Source: a methanogenic archaeon mixed culture ISO4-G1 (GTDB taxonomy: Archaea; Thermoplasmatota; Thermoplasmata; Methanomassiliicoccales; Methanomethylophilaceae). From it: DNA of 64,000 nucleotides. Each line of letters opens with the position of its first letter. The stretch's first letter is position 1. The translations under genes were made by a program, and so were the position numbers. Where the stretch lies: the NCBI GenBank assembly GCA_001563305.1, contig CP013703.1, positions 682,001 to 746,000 on the forward strand. The letters are read 5' to 3'. Shown piece after piece: positions 4,934 through 45,251 of this stretch. The notes beneath the pieces are model-generated. The model did not search any database. It saw nothing but the letters and a program-made list of their open reading frames with translations, and was not told where the DNA came from.

Positions 4934-6283
4934 TCATCTCTTCTCGAGCGGTACGTAGTCCAGGGGCTCGTGCACGTTGACGTATGCGGGCCTGACGATC
5001 TTGTTGGACGAGATCAGCTCCTCCACGCGGTGTGCGCTCCATCCCACTATCCTCGCGGTGGCGAACAGCGGGGTGTAGACCTCCTTGGGGATGTCCAGCA
5101 TCTCGTAGACGAAACCGCTGTAGAAATCCACGTTGGCGCAGACGCTCTTGTTGTTGTGCTTGTGCGCCATGATCAGTGCGGGAGCGATCCTCTCGATGTT
5201 GGTGTAGTACTTGAGGTCCTTCTCGCATCCCTTGTCCTTAGCCAGCTCGGCGACGAACGATTTGAACACCGATGCACGGGGGTCGGATTTGGTGTAGATC
5301 GCGTGGCCCATTCCGTAGATGAGGCCGGATCCGTCGAACGCCTTCTTGTCCAGGATCTTGTTCAGATAATCTGTGAGAGCATCGATGTCGTCCGGGTCCT
5401 TGACGTGCTTCTTGATATCGGTCATCATGTCCATGACCTTCAGGTTCGCACCGCCGTGCTTGGGGCCCTTGAGGGACGACATGGCCGCGGCGATGACCGA
5501 ATACGTGTCGGAACCGGTGGACGTGGTGACCCTGGTGGTGAAAGTGGAGTTGTTCCCTCCTCCGTGCTCCATGTGGAGCACAAGTGCCAGATCTAGGACG
5601 GTGGCCTCGAGCTCAGTGTACTTCTTGTCGGGCCTGAGCATGCGCAGGAAGTTCTCCGCGGTGGAGAGGTGCGGGTCCGGGTTGTGGATGTACATGCTCT
5701 GTCCGTTGATGTAGTGGTTGTAAGCGTGATAGCTGTACACGGTGAGCATCGGGAACACCGTGATCAGGTAGAGGCACTGCCTCAGGACGTTGTCGATGGA
5801 GTTGTCCAGCGCATCGTCGTCGTACGATGCCAGGAATAGCACCTCCCTGGATATGGCGTTCATGACATCCTTGTTGGCGGCCTTCATGATGACGTCCCTG
5901 GTGAACGTCTTGGGCAGCTTTCTGTTCTGGTTGAGGATGCCCATGTACTCCTCGAGCTCCTTCTTGTTGGGGAGCTTCCCGAACATGATGAGGTAGGAGA
6001 TCTCCTCGAAACCGAATCTCTTGTTGAGGAATCCCTGTGTCAGCTCCTCGATGCTGTATCCGCGGTAGCGAAGGATGCCTTCGCACTCGGTCTTCACACC
6101 GTCGACGACGATGGTTCCGTCCACCTGGGACACTTCCGTAAGACCTACAATCACACCGTTACCCTGAACGTCGCGAAGACCCTTCTTCACATCGTATTTG
6201 GAATAATCAGCGGGCTCGAATGCATCGTTCTCCTCACACATGTGGCGTTTGGACTCGATGAACTTCTCGTACTCTTTCTTCAT
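4934..6283 (-). CDS. Citrate synthase
   Basis: Condenses acetyl-CoA and oxaloacetate to citrate, in an archaeal methanogen presumably for 2-oxoglutarate and glutamate supply. The 449-residue protein shows the family motifs in order: the catalytic-His region GPKHGGANLKVMDMM, the second His region YGMGHAIYTKSDPRA (a variant of the usual GFGHRVY), and NVDFYSGFVYEMLDIP with the catalytic Asp. The ATG at 6283 is chosen over a longer in-frame start at 6343 because GAGGTCG lies 6 bases upstream and the extension looks non-coding. A methylcitrate synthase role cannot be excluded by sequence alone. It is the first gene of an operon with mptD. The 250-base AT-rich interval upstream (6284-6533) separates it from a divergent gene. 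Stop TGA. Confidence 0.92.
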   Translation of the reverse strand: MKKEYEKFIESKRHMCEENDAFEPADYSKYDVKKGLRDVQGNGVIVGLTEVSQVDGTIVVDGVKTECEGILRYRGYSIEELTQGFLNKRFGFEEISYLIMFGKLPNKKELEEYMGILNQNRKLPKTFTRDVIMKAANKDVMNAISREVLFLASYDDDALDNSIDNVLRQCLYLITVFPMLTVYSYHAYNHYINGQSMYIHNPDPHLSTAENFLRMLRPDKKYTELEATVLDLALVLHMEHGGGNNSTFTTRVTTSTGSDTYSVIAAAMSSLKGPKHGGANLKVMDMMTDIKKHVKDPDDIDALTDYLNKILDKKAFDGSGLIYGMGHAIYTKSDPRASVFKSFVAELAKDKGCEKDLKYYTNIERIAPALIMAHKHNNKSVCANVDFYSGFVYEMLDIPKEVYTPLFATARIVGWSAHRVEELISSNKIVRPAYVNVHEPLDYVPLEKR

Positions 6284-28813: not shown

Positions 28814-30561
28814 TCAGATCTCCGCCTCTTCGTCTTCAGATCCGAACAGAGCGCTCAGCCCCTCGTTTGAATCCTCCTCTGTAGGCTCCATCTCCTCCAG
28901 TTTCCTTGCTGCGTCCTCGCTGCCGAGGAAGGCTGCGCGATCAAACCATCTCCTGGCCATCTTCAGGTCCTTCCTGACGGCCTTTCCACGACGGTAGTAT
29001 ATGCCCATGAGGTACTGTGCCTGCGGATGGCGGTCAAAGGCAGCGTCTTCGATGTATCTCAGTGCCCCTTTCTCATCGGCATCCCTGCCGATACCGCAGT
29101 ACATGATGATGCCGAGTTTTTCCTTGCAGGAGGTGCAGCCCATCTTCGCGCCTCTCGTATACCATCTGGTAGCTATGTTCACGTCGAAGTCCTCGTTATC
29201 CCGGTCCATGTAGTGGTCGCCGACGGGTGAGAAAGATTCTATGTCGTCATCCTCTATGGCCATCTTCTTTAGCATGTCCACGTCCTCGTAGTCGGGTTCC
29301 TCGAACGGATCCAGCATAGCAATCATCTCCTCCAGCTTGTCCTGCACGAGTGGGTCCTTCTCGTATGCTTTGCTGTACCATTTTACTGCCATGCTGTTGG
29401 ACACGTGGACGATGCCCCCTGTGGCGTATTCCTCTGCCAGATCGGTCATTGCGGAGAGTTCTCCGCCCATTGCGGATCTGCGGAGCCAGTAGGCGGCTTC
29501 ATCGGGATCGGACGAGCGGTAGAGCCTGTACAATCCGTACTGTGCTCCGGCGTGTCCTCCCTCTGCCGCTCCTCTCTCGAGCTCCTCGGCCCTTTCGGCA
29601 TCGTGGTCAGGACCATTCTCCCACAGGTGCTCTGCGAACCGGTGCATGCACTCATGGTTGCCGTAAATGGCACCCAGTTCTAACGTGCTGAGGTATTTTT
29701 CCTCATCGTATTCGAAGACCACACCTTCATAGTACAGGTCGGCGACCACATCCATGGCGGACCCGTAGCCTTCGCTTACGATCCTGAATGCCCAGGACCT
29801 GACCTTGGTGTGGTTCCAATATCCCGGTTCGTTCATGTATATGTCGACGATTTCGCGTGCCGCCCTGGTGTGCCAGTGCTCGACAGCATCCTCCAAGAAT
29901 TCTAGGGCCTTGTCCACGTTCTTCTCGGTGCCGATGCCATGCCTGAGCATCCTCCCGACCATGATTACCGCTTCATCCACATCTCCTTCAGCGGCTTCCC
30001 TGAACAGTCCGAAGGCCCGCTCCAGGTCCTTCTGGACCAGATCGCCCTGGAATACAGGTTGGCAAGTTCGAATTTTGCTTCTTCGTTTCCTTTTGATGCG
30101 GCTCTTTTGAGGTATTTCTCCGCGCGTTTTCCGTTCCTGTCCCGGATACAGATCTCTCCGACCTCGAGCATGGCGGGAACGCAGCCTCTTTTGGCTGCGG
30201 ATATCATCAGGGAGAATCCGAGTTCGTAGTCGCTCTCGATCCCTCTGCCCTCCATCAGGCACTCTCCGAGTTTCCAGATTCCTTCAGGACATCCCTGCTC
30301 GGCTGCCTTTCTGAAGTATTCGACGGCCTTCTCTGAATTCTTCTCGTCGGCTGCGCCTGAGAGTATGAGCTCTCCCGCTGCGACCTGCGCTCTGGCAAAT
30401 CCGAGGGCGGCGGATGTGAAGATGTATCCCTTCCCCAGTTCGGTGTCCATGGGTGCGGAAAATCCGTTCATGAGTTTGTTCCCCATGATGTAGGTGGCCT
30501 CGGGATCCAAGGCATTCACCTGCTCTCTGAGATCCTCCATCGTGATCCTGTTCAGAAGCAT
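28814..30561 (-). pseudogene. Sel1-repeat protein disrupted by a frameshift
   Basis: A Sel1-like (TPR-related) repeat protein of about 583 residues split by one frameshift. The 5' part (30561 to about 30053) ends NEEAKFELANLY; the 3' part continues at about 30052 as FQGDLVQKDLERAFGLFREA in another frame. Adding one T to TATTCC at 30054-30049 restores a continuous repeat, so one base is missing (mutation or sequencing error). Repeats such as KAVEYFRKAAEQGCPEGIWKL and RAEKYLKRAASKGNEEAKFEL are diagnostic. An intact 594-aa paralogue is at 43467-45251. The ATG directly abuts the stop of the upstream frameshifted gene. Sel1 proteins scaffold protein complexes; no partner is evident. Stop TGA. Confidence 0.75.
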
Positions 30562-31327: not shown

Positions 31328-34114
31328 ATGAGAGAAACATCGATTGAGGTCAACGACCGGGGTGAGAAAGGAAGGGAGTCGTCCACTTCTGCGAGGGATT
31401 TTAAGATGAAGAAGACCAAGACCATCAGAGAGATTTACGAGGAAGCCAAAGCTCTGAACGTCGACCTTATCCTAACCAATGATGCCGCTCTCGCTACGGC
31501 CATCAACGCCATGGTAGACGAGCCCATGGTAGGTTCGTTCGCCATGACACCTATCCAGATGGCATCGAAACATGCCATCGACATCCTCGGTGAGCCAATC
31601 TGGAGCGAAGTCAGGGTCATACAGACGATCTCTGAGTATACCGGACTAGATTTCAGGTATGTGCATGGTGAAGTCGACAAGATCAAGGATATCGCAAGAT
31701 ACAGGGAGGACATAGAGCAGTTCCTAACATCGTCTTCCAAGAGGGTATACAGAAACTGGGCATCGCTTCCAACATTAGAAACGGCGATGAGGAAGTTCGA
31801 TGCTGACAATGCGCAGATCTACGAGGGTAAGAGGATCGGCACAATCGGAGCACAGTACTTCAATCGTATGGACAGGATGATGGTTCCGACCGATTCTCAG
31901 AATTTGGATATCTCAATCTTCAAGGATGGTGACTACAGGATCCCGAAGATCTTCGGGATAGGCAATGACAGGCAGATTGCCGACAACGCTGTGAAACTCA
32001 TCAACCCCCTCAACCCGTTGGATTATGCAATCGTGATGAACAGAGATTCCGGGCTAGCGGACGCAGTCAGGTCGGCACTGTACAGGGAGGGGCTTCCTTT
32101 TGTAAATGCTCTGGGTGTACGCGACCTGAATGGTATCAGGGACTTCATGCAGATGGCCGACAGATGCATGTCATATTGGACTCTCAGGGTTAGGGATGTA
32201 AGGAGCCTGTTCGCATCATTTGGAATAACGATATCGTCGAAGTCCGACGAACACCTTTTGCACAAGGAGAGATTCTGGGACGAGAAGGCCGAGGCATTAA
32301 GGCTGCTGATGGAAGAGACCAGCCTGTACGAGGATCAGGGCCACGGCACAACATTCCTGGACCTGGCTGAGAAGATTTACGACATCTCGGGAATGGATCA
32401 CAGGAGAGGACTGCCCTCGATCAAAATAGTCATCGACGATATGAAGCTCACCGACGAGCTCATTACACCTCAGAATGTTTCCAAGATGGAGTACGCGGTT
32501 GACAATGTCATGGACCTGCACCACAACGAGCAGATTCCCGAGGACGAGAAGAGAGGGGTTCTGCTTTCGGATTGCAAGAGCTCCGTGTTCATCGACAGAC
32601 CTGTGGTCATATACCTGGGTATGGAACAGGATTGGAACGTCGATCTGGTCAAGAAACCGTACATTCCCTGTATCGAGGATGAGGTTGATAACGTGGCGGA
32701 CACTATGTCTGCGATGTTACAGCAGGGATCCGTCAGATTCTATCTGGTCAATAGGACCAAGGAGGGGAAGACGGCAGTGCCCACCACAATGTTCAATGAG
32801 ATGATCAAGGTTAAGCCGAAGCCGATTGAGAGGTTCAGTGATATCACCGACGACTACAGGGAGGAGAGATGGTACGAGCCGCAGAAGTCGGGATACAATG
32901 TCAAAATCTCGGACTCTGAGGAGAAGTATGTTGCACCGTTTTCCCAATCCAACTTTTCCGAGTACGTCAAGTGTCCTAGGGGTTTCATGTTCAAAACGAT
33001 GTTATCGGATCCGGATAAGGCTGTGATGGAATTTGGTACTATGATCCACGAATTTGCTGAGACATATGCCAGTTATAAGAGGGAGGTCATGGAGAAAGGA
33101 CTTGATTCATTCATCAAGCAATCTTGTGACAGGTTCTCAGGTTTAAGCACACCGTTACTCGATGAATTCGACAAGGAAAGGATAAGATGTGCTGTGGTAA
33201 ACATCACGAGATTCATGGACCAAATGGGTCTTGGAGATCCGGGGGACGATGAATGGAAAGATGCAGATACCAAATATGGAGGTAACTGGTATTATGTCAA
33301 CAGTTTCGATGAGCCAAAGACCAAGACTTATTCTGAATGTGAGGATGATAAGGATTCGAACGAGCACAGGATACATGGCAAGATGGATTTAAAGCACGGA
33401 AATACCGTCATCGATTATAAGACTGGAGGGGCCAAATCAGGTAGCGAAATAGTGAAGAACTTCCAGTTGGACAAATTGGTACGGCACCCCGATTATCAAT
33501 GTTTGTTCTATCTTGCAGTTGCCTATGAACTGTACCACTCAGATACATTCCAGTTTTTCTTTGTCATGGATAATGATTTAGAATACATGGATCCAGATTA
33601 CGATATTAGACGCAATTTACGCACAGTAAAACTGATCGATAGGGACGTGGAGAGTTTAAAGAGAGATCCGTTAGTTTTGGACGCATTTGAGTCTGGTACT
33701 GCCTATAATGCTAAGTTCAAGGGGATGTCCGATCAGTTTATCGACATTTTGCTTGAGAATTCTAGTGGTGACATGTCTACTTGGGCAGATCCCAACATAA
33801 ACATCAGAGCATACAATGCTTTGAGCGACAAGTTCTGTAGCGAGGATGGCATGGATCCCGACACCTTCACCAACAACGTCAACAGGTATGTGGGGCTGAT
33901 AACAGCTCCGGTAATAGCATCATCAACAACCGTGTATGTGCAGAAGAAATATCTGGATGAGTTTCTCAATAAGGTGGATAAAATGCATGCCGAGATGTCC
34001 GAGGATTCTAAGAGAGTAGGCGGTTTGATGCCTTTTCCGAAGACCAACTGTCGCTACTGCAAGTACTTCTCCGTATGCATGATCGATAGGAATGATGAGG
34101 GGGCGGTAGAATGA
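31328..34114 (+). CDS. AddB-like PD-(D/E)XK nuclease with Fe-S staple
   Basis: A 928-residue AddB-type protein. The N-terminal 500 residues have no Walker A motif and would be the inactive helicase-like scaffold. From about residue 545 a Cas4/AddB-type nuclease follows: FSEYVKCPRGFMF (first Fe-S Cys), FGTMIHEFAETY (the His/acid motif), then HGKMDL and VIDYKTGG (the D...D-x-K catalytic core). CRYCKYFSVC near residue 909 supplies the C-x2-C-x5-C triad of the 4Fe-4S staple. All catalytic positions look intact, unlike the other AddB-like gene in this window. The final ATGA overlaps the start of the AddA-like helicase. It is expected to process DNA ends in repair or degrade foreign DNA. An in-frame ATG at 31406 is an alternative start. 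Confidence 0.85.
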   Translation: MRETSIEVNDRGEKGRESSTSARDFKMKKTKTIREIYEEAKALNVDLILTNDAALATAINAMVDEPMVGSFAMTPIQMASKHAIDILGEPIWSEVRVIQTISEYTGLDFRYVHGEVDKIKDIARYREDIEQFLTSSSKRVYRNWASLPTLETAMRKFDADNAQIYEGKRIGTIGAQYFNRMDRMMVPTDSQNLDISIFKDGDYRIPKIFGIGNDRQIADNAVKLINPLNPLDYAIVMNRDSGLADAVRSALYREGLPFVNALGVRDLNGIRDFMQMADRCMSYWTLRVRDVRSLFASFGITISSKSDEHLLHKERFWDEKAEALRLLMEETSLYEDQGHGTTFLDLAEKIYDISGMDHRRGLPSIKIVIDDMKLTDELITPQNVSKMEYAVDNVMDLHHNEQIPEDEKRGVLLSDCKSSVFIDRPVVIYLGMEQDWNVDLVKKPYIPCIEDEVDNVADTMSAMLQQGSVRFYLVNRTKEGKTAVPTTMFNEMIKVKPKPIERFSDITDDYREERWYEPQKSGYNVKISDSEEKYVAPFSQSNFSEYVKCPRGFMFKTMLSDPDKAVMEFGTMIHEFAETYASYKREVMEKGLDSFIKQSCDRFSGLSTPLLDEFDKERIRCAVVNITRFMDQMGLGDPGDDEWKDADTKYGGNWYYVNSFDEPKTKTYSECEDDKDSNEHRIHGKMDLKHGNTVIDYKTGGAKSGSEIVKNFQLDKLVRHPDYQCLFYLAVAYELYHSDTFQFFFVMDNDLEYMDPDYDIRRNLRTVKLIDRDVESLKRDPLVLDAFESGTAYNAKFKGMSDQFIDILLENSSGDMSTWADPNINIRAYNALSDKFCSEDGMDPDTFTNNVNRYVGLITAPVIASSTTVYVQKKYLDEFLNKVDKMHAEMSEDSKRVGGLMPFPKTNCRYCKYFSVCMIDRNDEGAVE

Positions 34115-37068
34115 CAGAGAAGAAAGGGCCAAACAAAAAACAGCAGGAATTGATCGACCAACATAACGGCATGGTCAAGGTGGATGCCGGACCTGGCACT
34201 GGGAAGACAGACACAATTGTCCACAGGTATGTAGATATCCTGAAAAATGAGCAGGTTCCCCCAGGAGAGGTCCTGATGTTAACATTCACCGAGAACGCAG
34301 CGGAGGAGATGTCCGAGAGGATAAAGTTCGAGATGGAGAAGAAAGGCCTCACCCAAGAGAAGAAAAAAGTCTTGGCCATGACATTTGACTCATTCTTTCA
34401 CTCCATAGTGATGGACAATGTCGAGTTTGTAGGGGACTTCTTCGGTATAAAGAAGAAGATGACTCGCTCTGCCACCCTCAGCTCCAACGAGACCATGAAC
34501 AAGCTGTACTTCAGGAGATACTATGAGGATTTTATGGACAGGCATGGTAGTAGGTATGGTGATATCGCGGTGATACTTGCGAGCGAGTGGGCCATTATGT
34601 ACGATCTCATTCAGAGGTTGATGTCCAAAGGGGTGGTTCCAATCAAGGACGGCTGGTTCGGATACAACTGGAAGGAGGCTCTGTACGGCAAGAAGGAACT
34701 TTCCGATAGGATGAAGGGCCTTATGGGCAAGAAGTTTACAAAAGCTCTGAAAAACAATAAAGAGTATTCCCAAGACTTCTCTGGGAAACTGGTTACGCAG
34801 GAAACCATAGATGATGCCATCAGAGGAAATCGCGAAATGTTGTCAGAGTTGATCCATGATGTGTTTTTAGGATACATCGAGAAAAGTATCTCAGACAACA
34901 GGCTAACCTTCGCGTTGAATTCGACGTTCGCTTTCACACTGCTCTACGGCAGTAAAATTGTAAGAGATGCCCATAAGTTCACTTACGTGGTAATAGATGA
35001 GTTCCAGGACACAGATGCTAAGCAGCTAATGGTGGCTCTGATGCTGCTGAAAAAGGACTGTCCAAATCTGTGCGTGGTTGGAGACTGGAAGCAAGGTATC
35101 TATGGGTTCAGATACGTATCTATAGAGAACATCAAGAACTTCAAGGGAAGGGTGGAGGAGCTTCATGCTTTCCTGAATTTGGACTGTCCAGACGGTAGGA
35201 GAGCAGATTTCAGATACGATTCGTCTGAGGTTAAGGAGGTTGTATTCAGGGAGAATTATCGCTCTACTCAGGAGATCGTGAACAAAGCGTACGACGTCAT
35301 GCTCGCCGAGGCTGTGAAAGGCGATGTGCAACCACCGAGCATGGAGGAGGATATTAAACGCATCACGGCTAAAAACGATTATTACAAGGCGTTCGAAGGA
35401 GGATTGAGATTCGTCCAAGCCAAGTCTCAGGATGATGAGCCTCTTATGGTAGTGAAGGCTGTGAGAGATTACGCGGACGGTAAGCATGTATTCTTCGAAA
35501 AGGACGGTACTAAGAGGATGTTAGACCTGAAGGACATCTGTGTATTGTGTCGCACGACTTACAAATGCAGAGAGGTGACCAATGCGTTGAAGGATGCTGG
35601 TATACCGGCATACTTACAGGGGGACGTAGAGATCATGTCTACTAGGGAGGGGAAGCTTGCATTGGCCTGGCTGAGATATGTGATGAACGAGCACGACCCC
35701 TATGGAATATATCCTATCCTTCTGGACCTTGGATATCCGATGGCGACGGTCCTCGTGGAGAAGAAAAGATGGGACGATTATCTAAGAACCAAGGATCAGC
35801 AGTACCTGAAAGACAAGATTCCGATGGAACTCAAGGACCAGAGGAAGGAGCTAATCAGGAGCAGTAGGAGGATACCCAGCATGCTGACCCAGTTGTTCGA
35901 GTTCTACGACGACCTGGATCAGGATATTGTGCAGGCCATAGTTTCTACAGTATCATCGTCACACAGGAACTCCCTGCTGACCATTGCAGATATAGTGTCG
36001 ATGATTGAGCAGGATATTGCCAATAGGACCAAGTACGAGGTTGAGGACAATATTGATAGGGATGCAGTGAGGGTCATGACGATGCATAAGTCTAAGGGAA
36101 TGGAGTTTGGGGCAGTCATCATCCCATACTTCGATTCCAGGAGTATGCCGAGCTCCGGATCCGGGGACATCTCCTAGAAGTCTATGTACTACAGTGAACT
36201 GGTTGGCGTCAGGTGCTTGTGTGATATGGTGGAAAACGGCGGCTATAAGAAGAAGGTTTACTCCTGGAGCTCTGACATGGTACGCTCGGTAGAGAAGCCC
36301 AGCTATGACGAGGATCATAGGCTGCTGTTCGTATCTTTATCCAGGGCGAAGATGTATGAGACATTGATATGCGGTCCGGACGAGTGCAGGTTCATGTAGT
36401 GCCTAAGGAAGGGGCGTGATTTCGAGGATATACCAGAACATCCGCTCAATGAGTTTGGATCAGTTCCGAAGCTTTCAGACATTCCGAAGGTCCCGCCCTA
36501 CGAGAAGAGGATCATCAAGATGTCCGTCCACGACATCATGAGGCTGAGGTACTCGTACAACGGGGATGAGATGTCTGACGAGATGGGCGGCAAGGGCATG
36601 GCCTACGGAACAGAGGTCCACAAGGACGCGGAGATGTTGAAGCGCGGAAGGGAGCCTGAGACGCCCAAACCGGAGCACGAGGTGATCCGTAGGATCCTGA
36701 AGGAAGTGGAATCCAGAGGACACATGTATGTATACGAAACGGAGATGGATTGCCAGCTGCCTATAAGGGATCAGAACGTGATGCTCAGGGGAACCATAGA
36801 CCTCATAGCAGGATACGACGACCATGTGGAGATTCACGATTGGAAGACTGACTCGGAGATGGATCCAGATGTGTTGGAGGAGTACAAACTGCAGCTTTCT
36901 GTATATGCTCAGGCGACGAAAGGATACTATGGGAAGGATGACGTAAGATGTTACATACACTATGTTAGCCTTGGAGAGACAGTTGCTTTTAAGCCTATGG
37001 ATACGGAGATGATTGAGGAGAGAGTCAGGGAGACGTTAATCACAAGAGGTGAGATAGAGATAGGGTGA
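34111..37068 (+). CDS. AddA-like helicase-nuclease with two in-frame TAG codons
   Basis: A single 985-codon frame interrupted only by TAG at 36175-36177 (codon 689) and 36397-36399 (codon 763). Before the first TAG: Walker A DAGPGTGKTDT (27-33), motif II VVIDEFQDTDAKQ (about 296), motif III VGDWKQGIYGFRYV, motif IV NYRSTQE and motif V TMHKSKGMEFGAVIIPY (about 655). Between the TAGs: motif VI RLLFVSLSRAKMYE (about 737). After the second: a PD-(D/E)XK nuclease with GTIDLIAGY and EIHDWKTDSEMD (895-913). Essential motif VI and the nuclease thus lie beyond TAGs, so the protein works only if UAG is decoded, most plausibly as pyrrolysine. No ribosome site suggests internal restarts. It overlaps the AddB-like gene (ATGA) and forms a helicase-nuclease pair with it. 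Final stop TGA. Confidence 0.8.
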
Positions 37069-38926: not shown

Positions 38927-40066
38927 TCAGGCTCTGACCATCTCGATGTTGGCGGCACCGCTCTTGCCTATGTCGAGAATGCTCTTTTCCATGTCGGACC
39001 TGCATTTTTCTAAATCGCATGAATGGCAGTACACCGTGGTGGCCGATTGGCCGTTGAAGCAATAGACCACTATGCATGACTTGTCACCGGAATACGTTCT
39101 GATCTCGAAGCGGTAAATCCTTCCGTCAACGAATCTAGCTATGAATCCGTCTATCAGTTCATCTGCAGTGAACGAGAACATCGCACGAGCTTCGAACCCG
39201 CTATAGATGGCCTTATCCACCGGCGTGTATTTCATGAAGCAATCTGCATAGAACTCGCAGACGTCTAGCTCTGATCCAGGTTCCATCCTGGATACCATGC
39301 ACTGGAAGTGCTCTTCATACATTCCAAGTTCCAAGCATTTCAGATCCTCATAGGTTTCAATCACAGGCCTCAGCCCATGGGCACCTATAGCATCGATGAA
39401 TCCGCACAGAACACAGTCACGATCCATCCTTTCGATGCTGATGAGATTACCATCCTCTTTGATGAGATTCGATACCGTGGACGAGAACGCATCAAATCCA
39501 GAGGAATACGCATCGGTCCAATCGTCGAATATGCTTGCAGGATCCGGTTCTTCGATATCGCAGTTCTCGTGGAAGACACGCATTGTGAATACTGTATCGA
39601 ACTTCTCGCCATGGAGATCCTTGGCATCGCAGTTCCTGAACTCGATGTTGGTTACACCCATCTTCTCGCAGTTCCTGCGAGCGATTTCAACGCCTTTGGC
39701 ATTGCGATCGATCGACACGATCTTCTTCTCTGGGAACAGGCTGCCCAGGAATGTGGTCATGGCGCCGATATCGCACCCGATCTCCAGTATGGTTTCGCCG
39801 AAGCATTCTTTGTTCTTGTATATCCAGTTGCATGCTTTGTGAACGGTATCCACATCAAACGCACCAGTCAGAAACATTGCGAGATCGTAGTTGTCATTCT
39901 TCCTGTCGTAGAATGCCAGCCCATCCCCTCCTTTGGTCTTGTTGACCTGGCATACATCATCGATACCGATCTTGAATCTGGATCTCAGTTCTTTGTTCAG
40001 TCTGACCTCTCCATTGACCTTTTTGTATCCGAGTTTCTTTACATGCTCCTTTCCAACATCTATCAT
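38927..40066 (-). CDS. SAM-dependent class I methyltransferase
   Basis: A 379-residue protein with a Rossmann methyltransferase fold. Motif I is ETILEIGCDIGAMTTFLGSL (about 90-110), followed by the acidic motif II KIVSIDRNAKGVEIARRNCE, post-motif DKFDTVFTMRVFHE-like sequence (EKFDTVFTMRVFHE), and a Cys pair near the C-terminus (VYCHSCDLEKC). The substrate cannot be inferred. An excellent AAAGGAGGTCG ribosome site precedes the ATG. It lies downstream of the reverse transcriptase on the same strand, separated by about 560 bases rich in inverted repeats, and could be an accessory of that locus. Stop TGA. Confidence 0.75.
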   Translation of the reverse strand: MIDVGKEHVKKLGYKKVNGEVRLNKELRSRFKIGIDDVCQVNKTKGGDGLAFYDRKNDNYDLAMFLTGAFDVDTVHKACNWIYKNKECFGETILEIGCDIGAMTTFLGSLFPEKKIVSIDRNAKGVEIARRNCEKMGVTNIEFRNCDAKDLHGEKFDTVFTMRVFHENCDIEEPDPASIFDDWTDAYSSGFDAFSSTVSNLIKEDGNLISIERMDRDCVLCGFIDAIGAHGLRPVIETYEDLKCLELGMYEEHFQCMVSRMEPGSELDVCEFYADCFMKYTPVDKAIYSGFEARAMFSFTADELIDGFIARFVDGRIYRFEIRTYSGDKSCIVVYCFNGQSATTVYCHSCDLEKCRSDMEKSILDIGKSGAANIEMVRA

Positions 40067-40276: not shown

Positions 40277-40478
40277 GTCCCATATGCAAGAGCGTACAGG
40301 CAGAATCATTCTTTGTCCTCTTCTAGCGAAAAACTGGTAAATAAAGATTGCGATTTTTTAGTATTTAAAGAAAAGAAAAGAAAAGTTTAGCCAGCAATCA
40401 AATTGATTCTACAAAATTTTCTTTTCTTTTTTCTGAGATTATCTTTCATGAAGTCGGTGATTCTTCGGAGAAAAAGAT

Positions 40479-40637
40479 GTGCAGGACCGAAATCCTCCTG
40501 GTACCCGAAGGACGATCGATCGAAGACGGGAACCGTCTTCAAAAGGCCACCACACGGCACGACCATCTGCGAGGTCTGATATGTGCCGTGCCTGGACCAC
40601 CGGCAGATTAGCCGCGTCCGGCAATCAGGTCCTGCAC
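40479..40637 (-). ncRNA. Candidate structured RNA adjoining the reverse transcriptase
   Basis: A 159-base element closed by a perfect 10-bp terminal helix, GTGCAGGACC at 40479-40488 with GGTCCTGCAC at 40628-40637. Inside are two perfect 8-bp hairpins: CACGGCAC 40553-40560 with GTGCCGTG 40583-40590 (extended inward by GACC/GGTC), and GAAGACGG 40522-40529 with CCGTCTTC 40533-40540. On the minus strand it is followed by a T-rich run (ATCTTTTTCTCC). It overlaps only the last 13 bases of the RT gene. The architecture recalls the terminal a1/a2 pairing of retron RNAs or the ncRNAs of defence RT systems, but it is 3' of the RT gene rather than 5'. The strand is inferred from the U-tract and RT orientation. 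Confidence 0.5.
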
Positions 40638-41878
40638 GGCACTCCATCTTCGGATTCGGATTTATATCTACGGTTATAGAATCTGTTGACAAGGGTTTGG
40701 TAGCCCATTCCCTTCAGATATTGGTATGATACGCAATACAGGTTGCCCTTAACATGCTTTCCCGTGACGATGAATCTGCACCATTCCTGTATCTGATTAT
40801 CGATGATCTTTAGCGATTTATCAGTATTGATAAGAGGGAAGTACCAGTGCGTCCAGCAGGCCTTCGAGTTCTTCTCCCAACCGAAGAACCTCTGGTCCAT
40901 TCTGGTCAGGAAGCAATGGACGGATTCCTCTGTAGTCTTTTCGCCTATCTCAACCAGTTTTCTATAGTGCCTACCTTCCATTCTGATCTTCTTCATGGTC
41001 CTGTCCAAGGATTTTCTGTTCAGGTCGAATGAACCATCTTGGATGAACAGGCCCAGGAATTCGATTCTGTCATGAGGCCTGTAGAAGATCTCCTTGTCGG
41101 GGTTGATAACCAGATTTCTTTTTTTGATGAGCATCCTGACATACCCGACATGTTTATTCAGTTCCTCTTTGGAGTTTGAAAGGATAAGGATATCGTCAGC
41201 GAATCTGTAGTATTGGATCCTCATCTGTTTGAAATGGATGTCTATGTCGTTCAGATACAGATTGGAAAGGAACGTGGAGAATGGCAGGCCCGGCATGATG
41301 CCCCTTTTCTCATCTATGATGATCTCTCCTTCAAATTCGACCTCGGGATTACCGATTATACTGCCGATCAGTTCGATCACTCCTTTATCGATTCTCGCTT
41401 TCTTCATGATGCTAATCATCTTTTTCTGATCGACTGAGTTGAAGTATTTGGTGATGTCCGCTTTGTAGGCGTACATGGAACCTATATCATCTATGGCGCG
41501 AAGCCTGGCTACCGCTTTCTGGACGCCACCTTCGTTACGGAATGAATATAGATTATCCTGGAAGATAGCGTCATAATCCTGCAGCAGATCGGCCAGCACC
41601 CTCAGGACCATATGTTCGGTCATGTCCTTGCGTTTACATGAGTAGACAACACGTTTCTCTTCCGAATCAGGTTTGGGGATCTCGATCCTGCGAACAGGTT
41701 TGAATGTATACGTGCCATTACGTATGCTTTCAACAATTCCTCTGTATCTTCTGTTTACGATGAAATCCTCCATGATCTCTGCTTTCTCTTTGCTAGCAGA
41801 TGTCGATTTGCGCTTTAGGAAATCATCCCATACGGAATCGTCGCATAATCTGTCTATAATGGATCTGGATTCGGCCAT
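40625..41878 (-). CDS. Reverse transcriptase
   Basis: A 417-residue RNA-directed DNA polymerase. Core motifs: MYAYKADITKYFNSVDQ (motif A Asp), GIMPGLPFSTFLSNLYLNDI (motif B), QYYRFADDILILSNS (motif C, catalytic ADD), then KRNLVINPDKEIFY and RIEFLGLFIQDG. The roughly 150 C-terminal residues (FFGWEKNSKACWTHWYFPL, WCRFIVTGKH) have no maturase HNH. The motif B sequence is not the group II intron QGxxxSP form nor the SQ form typical of diversity-generating elements. It therefore looks like a stand-alone, possibly defence-related RT. A ribosome site AGGTGAAAG precedes the ATG. The structured element at 40479-40637 begins at its stop codon. Stop TGA. Confidence 0.85.
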   Translation of the reverse strand: MAESRSIIDRLCDDSVWDDFLKRKSTSASKEKAEIMEDFIVNRRYRGIVESIRNGTYTFKPVRRIEIPKPDSEEKRVVYSCKRKDMTEHMVLRVLADLLQDYDAIFQDNLYSFRNEGGVQKAVARLRAIDDIGSMYAYKADITKYFNSVDQKKMISIMKKARIDKGVIELIGSIIGNPEVEFEGEIIIDEKRGIMPGLPFSTFLSNLYLNDIDIHFKQMRIQYYRFADDILILSNSKEELNKHVGYVRMLIKKRNLVINPDKEIFYRPHDRIEFLGLFIQDGSFDLNRKSLDRTMKKIRMEGRHYRKLVEIGEKTTEESVHCFLTRMDQRFFGWEKNSKACWTHWYFPLINTDKSLKIIDNQIQEWCRFIVTGKHVKGNLYCVSYQYLKGMGYQTLVNRFYNRRYKSESEDGVPCRT

Positions 41879-43466: not shown

Positions 43467-45251
43467 TCAGTCCGCAGATTGCACCGATTCTGGCACCGTG
43501 GTGGATTCGGTGGACTCATCCGCTGTCGTTTCCTGTCTCAGGGCATCATCCAGAGCCTTCAGTTCTTCCTTGGCATTTTCCAGACCCTGTTCCGCTGCAC
43601 GGCTGAGCCATTTATGCGCTTCCTTGTCGTCCTTGGTAAAGTACTCTCCGTCCCTGTACATGCATCCTAGGAATCTTTGCGAGTATGGGCTCCCCATCTC
43701 TGCTGCCCTCTTGAACAGTTCTGCAGCCTTTCCGAGATCCTTTTCCACACCTTTTCCGAAGTAGTAGATGTAACCCATGTTGTCGATGCATCCTGAGTCG
43801 CCCAGCCTTGCACCGATATCAAACCAGAGCCTCGATCTGTCGTAATCGACGGCGTGTCCGTCCTCGCCCGTTTCGTACATGTAACCCAGCTTATAACACG
43901 ATGAAGCGTCGTCATTCTCTATGGCGCGTCTCTCGAGCTTTTCATCACCAGTCTCTTTCGGGTATCCCGTGAATGGGTCATTAGCGTCCATCATCATGTC
44001 CGTCTTAGCCTTCGCCAGTTCGTCTCCGTTCATGTATGCCCTGTTGTACCAGTACAGTGCGCGCATCATGTCCTGAGTGACGAAGATGCCCTGTTCGTAC
44101 AGCCTTCCAAGCTCATTCATGGCAGCCGTGTTGCCATTCCTTGCTGCCCACCTGTACCATATAAGGGCTTTCTGGCCATCGTTGCCTTCTTCATACATGT
44201 AGTAGTCACCGAGGCGGCACTGTGCCCTGGGCTCATACTCCCATCCGGCACGGTGGTACAGTTCCAGAGCCTTATCCATGTCTTTAGGGATCAGTTCTCC
44301 CTTCTCGAAGATGGATGCAAGTTCGAACATGCTCTTGGCATCATCAAGTTCTGCGGCCTTCTCGTAGCATTTGATGGTCAGATCGGGCCTGTGCGGCATA
44401 TCGCTCCCTGTCCTGTACAGCTCTGCTGCCATCCTTAGGCATTTGACGTTGTTGGCCTCTATCCCTCTGTAGAGCCAGTATCTGGCCTCTGTCGGATCCT
44501 TAATTGTCTTGTCCTCGTGGAAGATTCTGGCTAGTTCGTAGCAGGCGGAAGAGCATCCGTCATTGGCTGCTCTCCTTATGGAGTACAGGCCTTCGTTCTT
44601 CATGTCGTGTCCAAGATAGAACTGAATCATCCCAAGGCTTAGGGCTGCATAGGCGTCTCCTTTGAGCATGGCTTCCGAATACCATTCCACCGCCTTGTCG
44701 AGATCTTTCGGCACTCCTTTGCCCGTTTCATACATGTATCCGAGACAGTACTGCGCGTCAGCATATCCCTGTTTGGCCGCTTTCTCGTACCATTCGACAG
44801 CCAGATGGTAATCCTTTATCTTACCCAGGCCGTCATAGTAGGATTCTGCCAGTTCAAACTGTGCTGCAGCATGTCCCTTGCGAGCCGCTTTGCGGATGAG
44901 GCTGAGGTACACATCCCTGTTCATCTCAACGCCGTCACCGTCCTTGTACATCAGCGCCATGTTGCCCATGGCCTTCGGAAGCCCCTGATCGGCGGCTTTT
45001 GCGAACCACTCGGCTGCCCTCGTATCATCTCTCTCAAAATAATCCCCCTTGTTGTAGAGGTATCCGATGTAGTTCTGTGCGGGAGCGTATCCCAGTTCTG
45101 CGGACCTGAGCATGTATGCAATGCCTCTCTTGCGGTCCTTCTTTACTCCTCTTCCTTCGTCGAGTTTCCTTCCCAGGATGTACAGGGCATGCGCATTTCC
45201 GGATTCTGCATCCTCTACCAGCCTCTCGTAGTTCATATCAAAATATCCCAT
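43467..45251 (-). CDS. Sel1-repeat protein
   Basis: A 594-residue protein built almost entirely of about 15 Sel1-like repeats of about 36 residues, for example NDTRAAEWFAKAADQGLPKA-like units (DTRAAEWFAKAADQGLPKAM) and HLAVEWYEKAAKQGYADAQ. No signal peptide is seen, so it is probably cytoplasmic. Sel1 solenoids mediate protein-protein interactions. It is a full-length relative of the frameshifted gene at 28814-30561. A ribosome site GAGAGGGGAA lies before the ATG. Beyond the last repeat the tail is Thr/Ser/Glu-rich (DESTESTTVPESV). The GINS-like gene follows on the same strand. Stop TGA. Confidence 0.9.
   Translation of the reverse strand: MGYFDMNYERLVEDAESGNAHALYILGRKLDEGRGVKKDRKRGIAYMLRSAELGYAPAQNYIGYLYNKGDYFERDDTRAAEWFAKAADQGLPKAMGNMALMYKDGDGVEMNRDVYLSLIRKAARKGHAAAQFELAESYYDGLGKIKDYHLAVEWYEKAAKQGYADAQYCLGYMYETGKGVPKDLDKAVEWYSEAMLKGDAYAALSLGMIQFYLGHDMKNEGLYSIRRAANDGCSSACYELARIFHEDKTIKDPTEARYWLYRGIEANNVKCLRMAAELYRTGSDMPHRPDLTIKCYEKAAELDDAKSMFELASIFEKGELIPKDMDKALELYHRAGWEYEPRAQCRLGDYYMYEEGNDGQKALIWYRWAARNGNTAAMNELGRLYEQGIFVTQDMMRALYWYNRAYMNGDELAKAKTDMMMDANDPFTGYPKETGDEKLERRAIENDDASSCYKLGYMYETGEDGHAVDYDRSRLWFDIGARLGDSGCIDNMGYIYYFGKGVEKDLGKAAELFKRAAEMGSPYSQRFLGCMYRDGEYFTKDDKEAHKWLSRAAEQGLENAKEELKALDDALRQETTADESTESTTVPESVQSAD

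What the first reader, a model, noticed from the sequence alone, without database searches (positions are those of the whole stretch)
40387..41878. Stand-alone reverse transcriptase with an adjoining RNA-like element
Directly at the end of the RT gene lies a 159-base element closed by a perfect 10-bp terminal helix and holding two perfect 8-bp hairpins, then a U-rich run. RT plus structured RNA recalls retrons and defence RT systems, but the RNA is downstream of the RT and the RT motif B is unlike classic retron, group II or DGR forms. RTs with partner RNAs are scarcely described in methanogenic archaea.
Basis: partly seen in the sequence, partly recalled or inferred. Interest (0 to 1): 0.8.

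Follow-up and report, generated by a model that had tools for sequence, protein, structure and literature searches.

The report
Archaeal UG26 reverse transcriptase with RNA
A gut methanogen carries an uncharacterised defence-type reverse transcriptase (group UG26) next to a small folded RNA, and the same RNA sits beside the same enzyme in dozens of gut bacteria, so the two almost certainly work as one complex, probably against viruses.

Summary
The 159-nt element (40479-40637, minus strand) is a real RNA partner of the adjoining reverse transcriptase. The RT is a full-length UG26 member (PADLOC, E 2.5e-140), not a retron, group II intron or DGR enzyme. Of 84 sources with a UG26 RT, 77 carry the structured RNA; 94 loci with other RTs carry none. 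Bacterial copies are Rfam RT-5 RNA (RF03026). The window copy is a divergent archaeal member: 33 bits with RT-5 (below gathering), E about 1e-6 per genome with a model built from bacteria only. In 66 aligned RNAs, 38 of 40 pairs show two-sided changes, including a pseudoknot. The RNA is upstream of the RT in bacteria and two archaea; here and in three other archaeal loci it is downstream, overlapping the RT stop codon in the window, with a TATA-like box before it and a U-run after it. Best reading: a Class 2 DRT-like ribonucleoprotein whose RNA templates cDNA for antiviral defence. Partnership is shown by comparison; templating and defence are inferred. A DRT10-like template repeat was tested and not supported. 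Both families are known; their pairing and the archaeal arrangement appear undescribed in the literature I could search.

The parts
40625..41878 (-). UG26 reverse transcriptase, 417 aa (motif B GLPFSTFLSNLYL, active site YRFADD, C-terminal conserved Tyr385)
   Evidence: PADLOC RT_UG26 E 2.5e-140 over residues 6-404; Pfam RVT_1 only; AlphaFold2 model pLDDT 94
40479..40637 (-). Partner ncRNA, divergent archaeal RT-5 RNA (RF03026-like), 159 nt
   Evidence: R1 model 35.2 bits, E 9.6e-7 per genome; Rfam RT-5 33.1 bits, below gathering 45.7; fold z -4.15 for a 150-nt cut
40628..40637 (-). P1 closing helix, 5' strand GTGCAGGACC; overlaps the last codons of the RT
   Evidence: sequence; P1 covaries in 66 homologues, 11 of 11 pairs
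40479..40488 (-). P1 closing helix, 3' strand GGTCCTGCAC
   Evidence: as above
40611..40622 (-). Small hairpin GCCG-GACG-CGGC, counterpart of CGC-UUU-GCG in bacteria (assignment by position, not tested by counting)
40603..40608 (-). Pseudoknot 5' strand AUCUGC
   Evidence: descriptor scan; pseudoknot covaries in homologues, 6 of 7 pairs with two-sided change, 98.9% paired
40565..40570 (-). Pseudoknot 3' strand GCAGAU in the 8-nt P3b loop UCGCAGAU (40565-40572)
40595..40598 (-). P2 5' strand GGUC (pairs with GGCC 40545-40548)
40545..40548 (-). P2 3' strand GGCC
40583..40591 (-). P3 5' strand GCACGGCAC (pairs with GUGCCGUGU 40552-40560)
40552..40560 (-). P3 3' strand GUGCCGUGU
40573..40576 (-). 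P3b 5' strand GACC (pairs with GGUC 40561-40564)
40561..40564 (-). P3b 3' strand GGUC
40522..40540 (-). P4 hairpin GAAGACGG-UUC-CCGUCUUC
40489..40521 (-). Region between P4 and P1; by analogy with DRT10 the most likely template loop; holds GAUCGAUCG
   Evidence: position only; repeat test negative
40659..40666 (-). TATA-like box TATAAATC, 29 nt upstream of P1, inside the RT coding sequence
   Evidence: similar AT-rich boxes at about -28 to -30 in L043, L047, L052
40467..40478 (-). U-run ATCTTTTTCTCC directly after the RNA, likely terminator

Best explanation
The locus is a two-part UG26 system: an RT and its own small pseudoknotted RNA, made from an internal promoter at the 3' end of the RT gene and ended at a U-run. 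The RNA folds into a closed domain (P1 with P2/P3/P3b, pseudoknot and P4), binds the RT and serves as fixed template and scaffold. Upon infection, or constitutively, the RT copies a short single-stranded part of it, most likely between P4 and P1, into a repetitive cDNA that acts in antiviral defence, as in Class 2 DRT systems (DRT2, DRT9, DRT10). Shown by comparison: RT identity, RNA homology, structure, tight linkage. Inferred: separate transcription, binding, templating, protein priming, defence.
For: RT is UG26, 2.5e-140, against 5.7e-44 for the next model; next named groups include UG17 (DRT10), UG4, UG27 and Drt9. RNA present in 77 of 84 UG26 sources and in 0 of 94 other-RT loci, and in 3 of 60 related genomes, all with UG26. 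95.9% of cells paired against 71.9% shuffled; 38 of 40 pairs with two-sided change. Bacterial copies are Rfam RT-5. The model used was built without any archaeal sequence. RNA placement changes between upstream and downstream while structure is kept. Fold resembles RNA-bound DRT9 and DRT2 RTs, although group II intron RTs rank first. C-terminal Tyr385 is invariant in 38 UG26 RTs; DRT9 and DRT10 prime from C-terminal Tyr or Ser (PMC12483538, PMC12632851). The P4-then-loop layout resembles the DRT10 rule that the template follows a stable stem-loop.
Against: No template repeat like A-B-A' is detectable above chance in the loop after P4 (p 0.29), nor elsewhere. No expression, cDNA or defence data. 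The window lacks the COG2852-like partner protein found at 41 of the bacterial loci, so the archaeal system may work differently. No complete known defence system was recognised directly beside the RT. The window RNA scores below Rfam's gathering cut-off.
Confidence: 0.6

Rival explanations
1. The RNA is a bound cofactor or regulator (activity switch, oligomer scaffold or decoy sensor), not a template; the RT makes untemplated or protein-templated DNA.
For: No conserved template repeat found; Class 1 UG RTs and DRT3b synthesise without nucleic acid template (PMC13174585).
Against: Nearest named groups by profile include UG17/DRT10 and Drt9, which use ncRNA templates; RNA size and layout resemble DRT10 RNA as described.
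Confidence: 0.22
2. The RNA is a cis-regulatory element of the RT mRNA or its 3' end.
For: In bacteria it mostly lies shortly upstream of the RT start; here it overlaps the stop codon.
Against: It moves from upstream to downstream in archaea with structure intact; it has its own TATA-like box and U-run; a leader could not act from downstream.
Confidence: 0.05
3. Retron: the closing helix is a1/a2 and the RNA is an msr-msd.
For: Closed helix with internal hairpins next to an RT; C-terminal VTG tripeptide in the window protein.
Against: Profile best hit is UG26 by nearly 100 orders of magnitude, with no retron model among the best 25; the tripeptide is not conserved in UG26; the RNA belongs with RT-5, not a retron family.
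Confidence: 0.03
4. Group II intron or DGR remnant.
For: Foldseek and sequence place group II intron RTs first among solved structures.
Against: No Rfam group II intron in the window; only RVT_1 in Pfam, no maturase domain; no template/variable repeat pair nearby.
Confidence: 0.02

Closest known systems
Bacterial UG26 RT with RT-5 RNA (Rfam RF03026)
   Same: Full-length RT homology (about 30-40% identity), same RNA helices, same pseudoknot, tight linkage
   Different: Window: RNA downstream and overlapping the RT stop codon, archaeal TATA-like box, longer P4-P1 region, no COG2852-like partner protein, RNA below Rfam gathering score
DRT10 (UG17)
   Same: RT plus a small closed ncRNA with stem-loops and a loop after a stable stem-loop; next-best named UG profile
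   Different: UG26 RT is not UG17; no SLATT protein beside it; no A-B-A' repeat detected; telomerase-like repeat synthesis untested
DRT9 (UG28) and DRT2 (UG2)
   Same: Two-part RT plus ncRNA; similar RT fold; C-terminal conserved tyrosine as in DRT9
   Different: Different UG group; no conserved poly-U template tract found; no long DRT2-like template; usual RNA position differs
DRT3
   Same: ncRNA encoded downstream of the RT gene(s)
   Different: DRT3 has two RTs and an ACACAC template

Membership tests
UG26 reverse transcriptases | Best and full-length match to the UG26 profile | tested here: met
   E 2.5e-140, residues 6-404, profile 2-396 of 398
UG26 reverse transcriptases | Groups with UG26 rather than other RTs in a tree | tested here: met
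   UG26 rows incl. window separate from 5 other archaeal RTs with support 100; reference members of other UG groups were not included
RT-5 RNA (RF03026) | Covariance model score at or above gathering (45.7 bits) | tested here: not met
   33.1 bits, E 4e-4; bacterial and two archaeal relatives meet it
RT-5 RNA (RF03026) | Same consensus structure and pseudoknot, adjacent to the same RT group | tested here: met
   homologous though below the curated cut-off
Class 2 DRT system | RT with cis-encoded structured ncRNA | tested here: met
Class 2 DRT system | ncRNA templates repetitive cDNA; antiviral activity | not testable with these tools
   needs cDNA sequencing and phage assays
Class 2 DRT system | RT falls within the Class 2 clade of UG RTs | not tested
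   no reference set of UG classes at hand; profile neighbours UG17 and Drt9 are only suggestive
DRT10 (UG17) | A-B-A' repeat in the template loop | tested here: not met
   observed repeat length no greater than in chimeric controls, p 0.29
DRT10 (UG17) | Adjacent SLATT-domain protein | tested here: not met
   not among scanned neighbours of the window nor in the listed families of 123 bacterial neighbours
Retron | Retron-type RT profile and msr/msd RNA | tested here: not met
Group II intron | Intron RNA and maturase domain | tested here: not met
DGR | TR/VR repeat pair nearby | tested here: not met

The most novel reading that the evidence does not exclude
UG26 is a distinct defence mechanism whose pseudoknotted RT-5 RNA templates, or gates, DNA synthesis in a way unlike DRT2, DRT9 and DRT10, and it operates in archaea as a compact two-part form in which the RNA is transcribed from a promoter inside the RT gene.
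Probability: 0.3. Interest if true: 0.8.

Novelty: new variant of a known kind. Interest (0 to 1): 0.55.

Why it matters
It joins an Rfam RNA of unknown function (RT-5) to an uncharacterised RT group (UG26), gives a covariation-supported structure with a pseudoknot, and extends RT plus ncRNA systems to methanogenic archaea. That makes direct tests possible: which RNA is bound, what cDNA is made, and whether it protects. UG26 is widespread in gut Clostridia, so the result reaches well beyond one archaeon.

Tried and rejected
(1) A-B-A' template repeat after P4, as in DRT10: by eye many RNAs show it (L063, L079, L053), but chimeric controls give the same repeat lengths (p 0.29); a scan of all column pairs found nothing convincing. 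(2) Single-protein scan of genome contigs found nothing; the alignment query found 464 relatives, 80 kept. (3) Viral contigs gave only distant RTs, used as controls. (4) RNAalifold on the MAFFT alignment missed P1, P3b and P4 because of register shifts; a hand-named structure was used. (5) Group II, DGR and retron readings rejected. (6) The covariance model places P1 of the window copy wrongly (40503-40626) and misaligns its pseudoknot strand because of the longer 3' region; the likely P1 is 40628-40637 with 40479-40488. (7) Weinberg et al. 2017 (10.1093/nar/gkx699), from memory the source of the RT-n motifs, is not held in the library, and the Mestre UG classification paper did not appear in a search.

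Full report
Observation. The element is present as described. On the minus strand, 40637 to 40479, a 159-nt stretch is closed by GTGCAGGACC/GGTCCTGCAC, holds the hairpins CACGGCAC/GTGCCGTG and GAAGACGG/CCGTCTTC, and is followed by a U-rich run. A 150-nt cut folds 4.15 standard deviations better than shuffles. A 10-bp closing helix of this span is not rare in the window (12 per strand), so comparison had to decide.

The RT. The 417-aa ORF 40625-41878 matches PADLOC's RT_UG26 model over its whole length at E 2.5e-140; the next model is a generic RT at 5.7e-44, then UG17 (DRT10), UG4, UG27 and others including Drt9. Pfam sees only RVT_1 (a second, sub-threshold DUF6308 match is ignored). The AlphaFold2 model from 38 UG26 sequences has mean pLDDT 94. 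Its best PDB matches are group II intron RTs, G2L4 and DRT9; such ranking reflects a shared RT core and is not membership. UG26 is patchy in the genus: the window genome has one copy, and four of 30 other genomes of the genus (G005, G009, G011, G012) give strong matches. Contig C11 of G009 has the same length as a record titled Candidatus Methanomethylophilaceae archaeon, so the window genome, of the same genus, very likely belongs to that methanogen family.

The RNA. Flanks of archaeal relatives showed a similar element, upstream of the RT in G009 and G005, downstream in the window genome, G406 and G011. All share a stem with a 5' bulge, a 4-bp helix with an 8-nt loop, and complementarity of that loop to an upstream strand, changing in concert: AUCUGC/GCAGAU here, CACCUGC/GCAGGUG in G005, GUCUAC/GUAGAC in G011 (G406 seen by eye only). 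A descriptor scan found the same motif in dozens of UG26 loci from Clostridia and other bacteria. Rfam identifies these RNAs as RT-5, RF03026, in 14 of 15 loci tested. The window copy reaches 33.1 bits against a gathering score of 45.7.

Linkage and specificity. A covariance model built from 40 bacterial copies finds the RNA in 77 of 84 sources with a UG26 RT, including the window (35.2 bits) and four other archaeal loci, and in none of 94 loci with other RTs up to E 1. Of the seven without a match, G011 is cut by the contig end, G012 has a damaged RT, L048 has what looks like a transposase gene directly after the RT, L103 and L113 begin at the RT, and two (L057, L078) are unexplained. In 60 related genomes the RNA occurs in three, each with UG26.

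Structure. On 66 RNAs aligned to the model, 95.9% of cells pair against 71.9% in shuffles; 38 of 40 pairs have changes on both sides; sliding partners by one column drops pairing to about 43%. The pseudoknot was not part of the model used for aligning, yet 98.9% of its cells pair and six of seven pairs have two-sided changes, so it is independent support.

Arrangement here. The 5' strand of P1 lies on the last RT codons and the stop codon is inside the RNA. TATAAATC begins 29 nt before P1, where an archaeal TATA box belongs; comparable AT-rich boxes precede the RNA in L043, L047 and L052. The RNA ends at a U-run. This suggests a separate transcript, not shown experimentally. In the RT tree the window protein groups with that of G011 (support 96), and the archaeal members are not one clade, so exchange between archaea and bacteria is likely but its direction is open.

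Neighbours. In bacteria a small protein with a COG2852-like C-terminus lies just upstream of the RNA in most of 41 loci that carry it; PADLOC knows it as RTasCOG2852. It was not found at the window locus or the archaeal loci examined. Hence the bacterial module may be three-part and the archaeal one two-part.

Mechanism. Class 2 DRT systems studied so far copy a fixed part of a cis-encoded ncRNA into repetitive cDNA (PMC12632851, PMC13174585, PMC12483538). The UG26 RNA has the same general plan: a closed domain, stem-loops, and a loop directly after a stable stem-loop. Tyr385 near the C-terminus is invariant in 38 UG26 RTs, which fits protein priming. I tested the specific DRT10 prediction, a repeat flanking the template, and did not find it above chance. 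So the claim 'RNA partner' is strong, 'template' is likely, and 'telomerase-like repeats' is not supported.

Novelty. RNA family and RT group are both known by name. In the papers I could search, nothing links them: one paper mentions UG26 in passing and none mentions RT-5 RNA or RF03026. Most subscription papers are not in that library, so the link may be noted elsewhere; the Rfam name RT-5 already implies linkage to some RT. The archaeal form, with the RNA moved downstream, is a new variant.

Noticed in passing
window 31328-37068 (+): PD-(D/E)XK protein (928 aa), UvrD-family helicase (688 aa; PADLOC RTasHel/GajB-like) and a small Cas4-like PD-(D/E)XK protein in a row; looks like an AddAB/RecBCD-type or defence helicase-nuclease set.
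   Followed up: partly
window 38927-40066 (-): Methyltransferase-domain protein downstream of the RT with a PADLOC mad2 (MADS system) match, E 1.7e-18.
   Followed up: no
window 28814-30262 and 43467-45251 (-): Two long repeat-rich proteins; Pfam gives Sel1 repeats for 28814-30262, and 43467-45251 looks similar by eye, on either side of the RT locus.
   Followed up: no
bacterial UG26 loci among L051-L125, just upstream of the RNA: Small protein with an MG-(L/F)-(L/F)-x-K-L start and COG2852-like C-terminus recurs in 41 bacterial UG26 loci; L052 (archaeal) and L049/L050 have other small MGLFD-type proteins that may be analogues.
   Followed up: partly
L070:763-897 (-): An RT-5-like RNA lies about 3 kb from the UG26 RT and on the other strand, near a COG2852-like gene, away from the usual place.
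   Followed up: no
L048, after position 5300: What looks by eye like a transposase gene follows directly after the UG26 RT, so the expected downstream RNA is missing.
   Followed up: no
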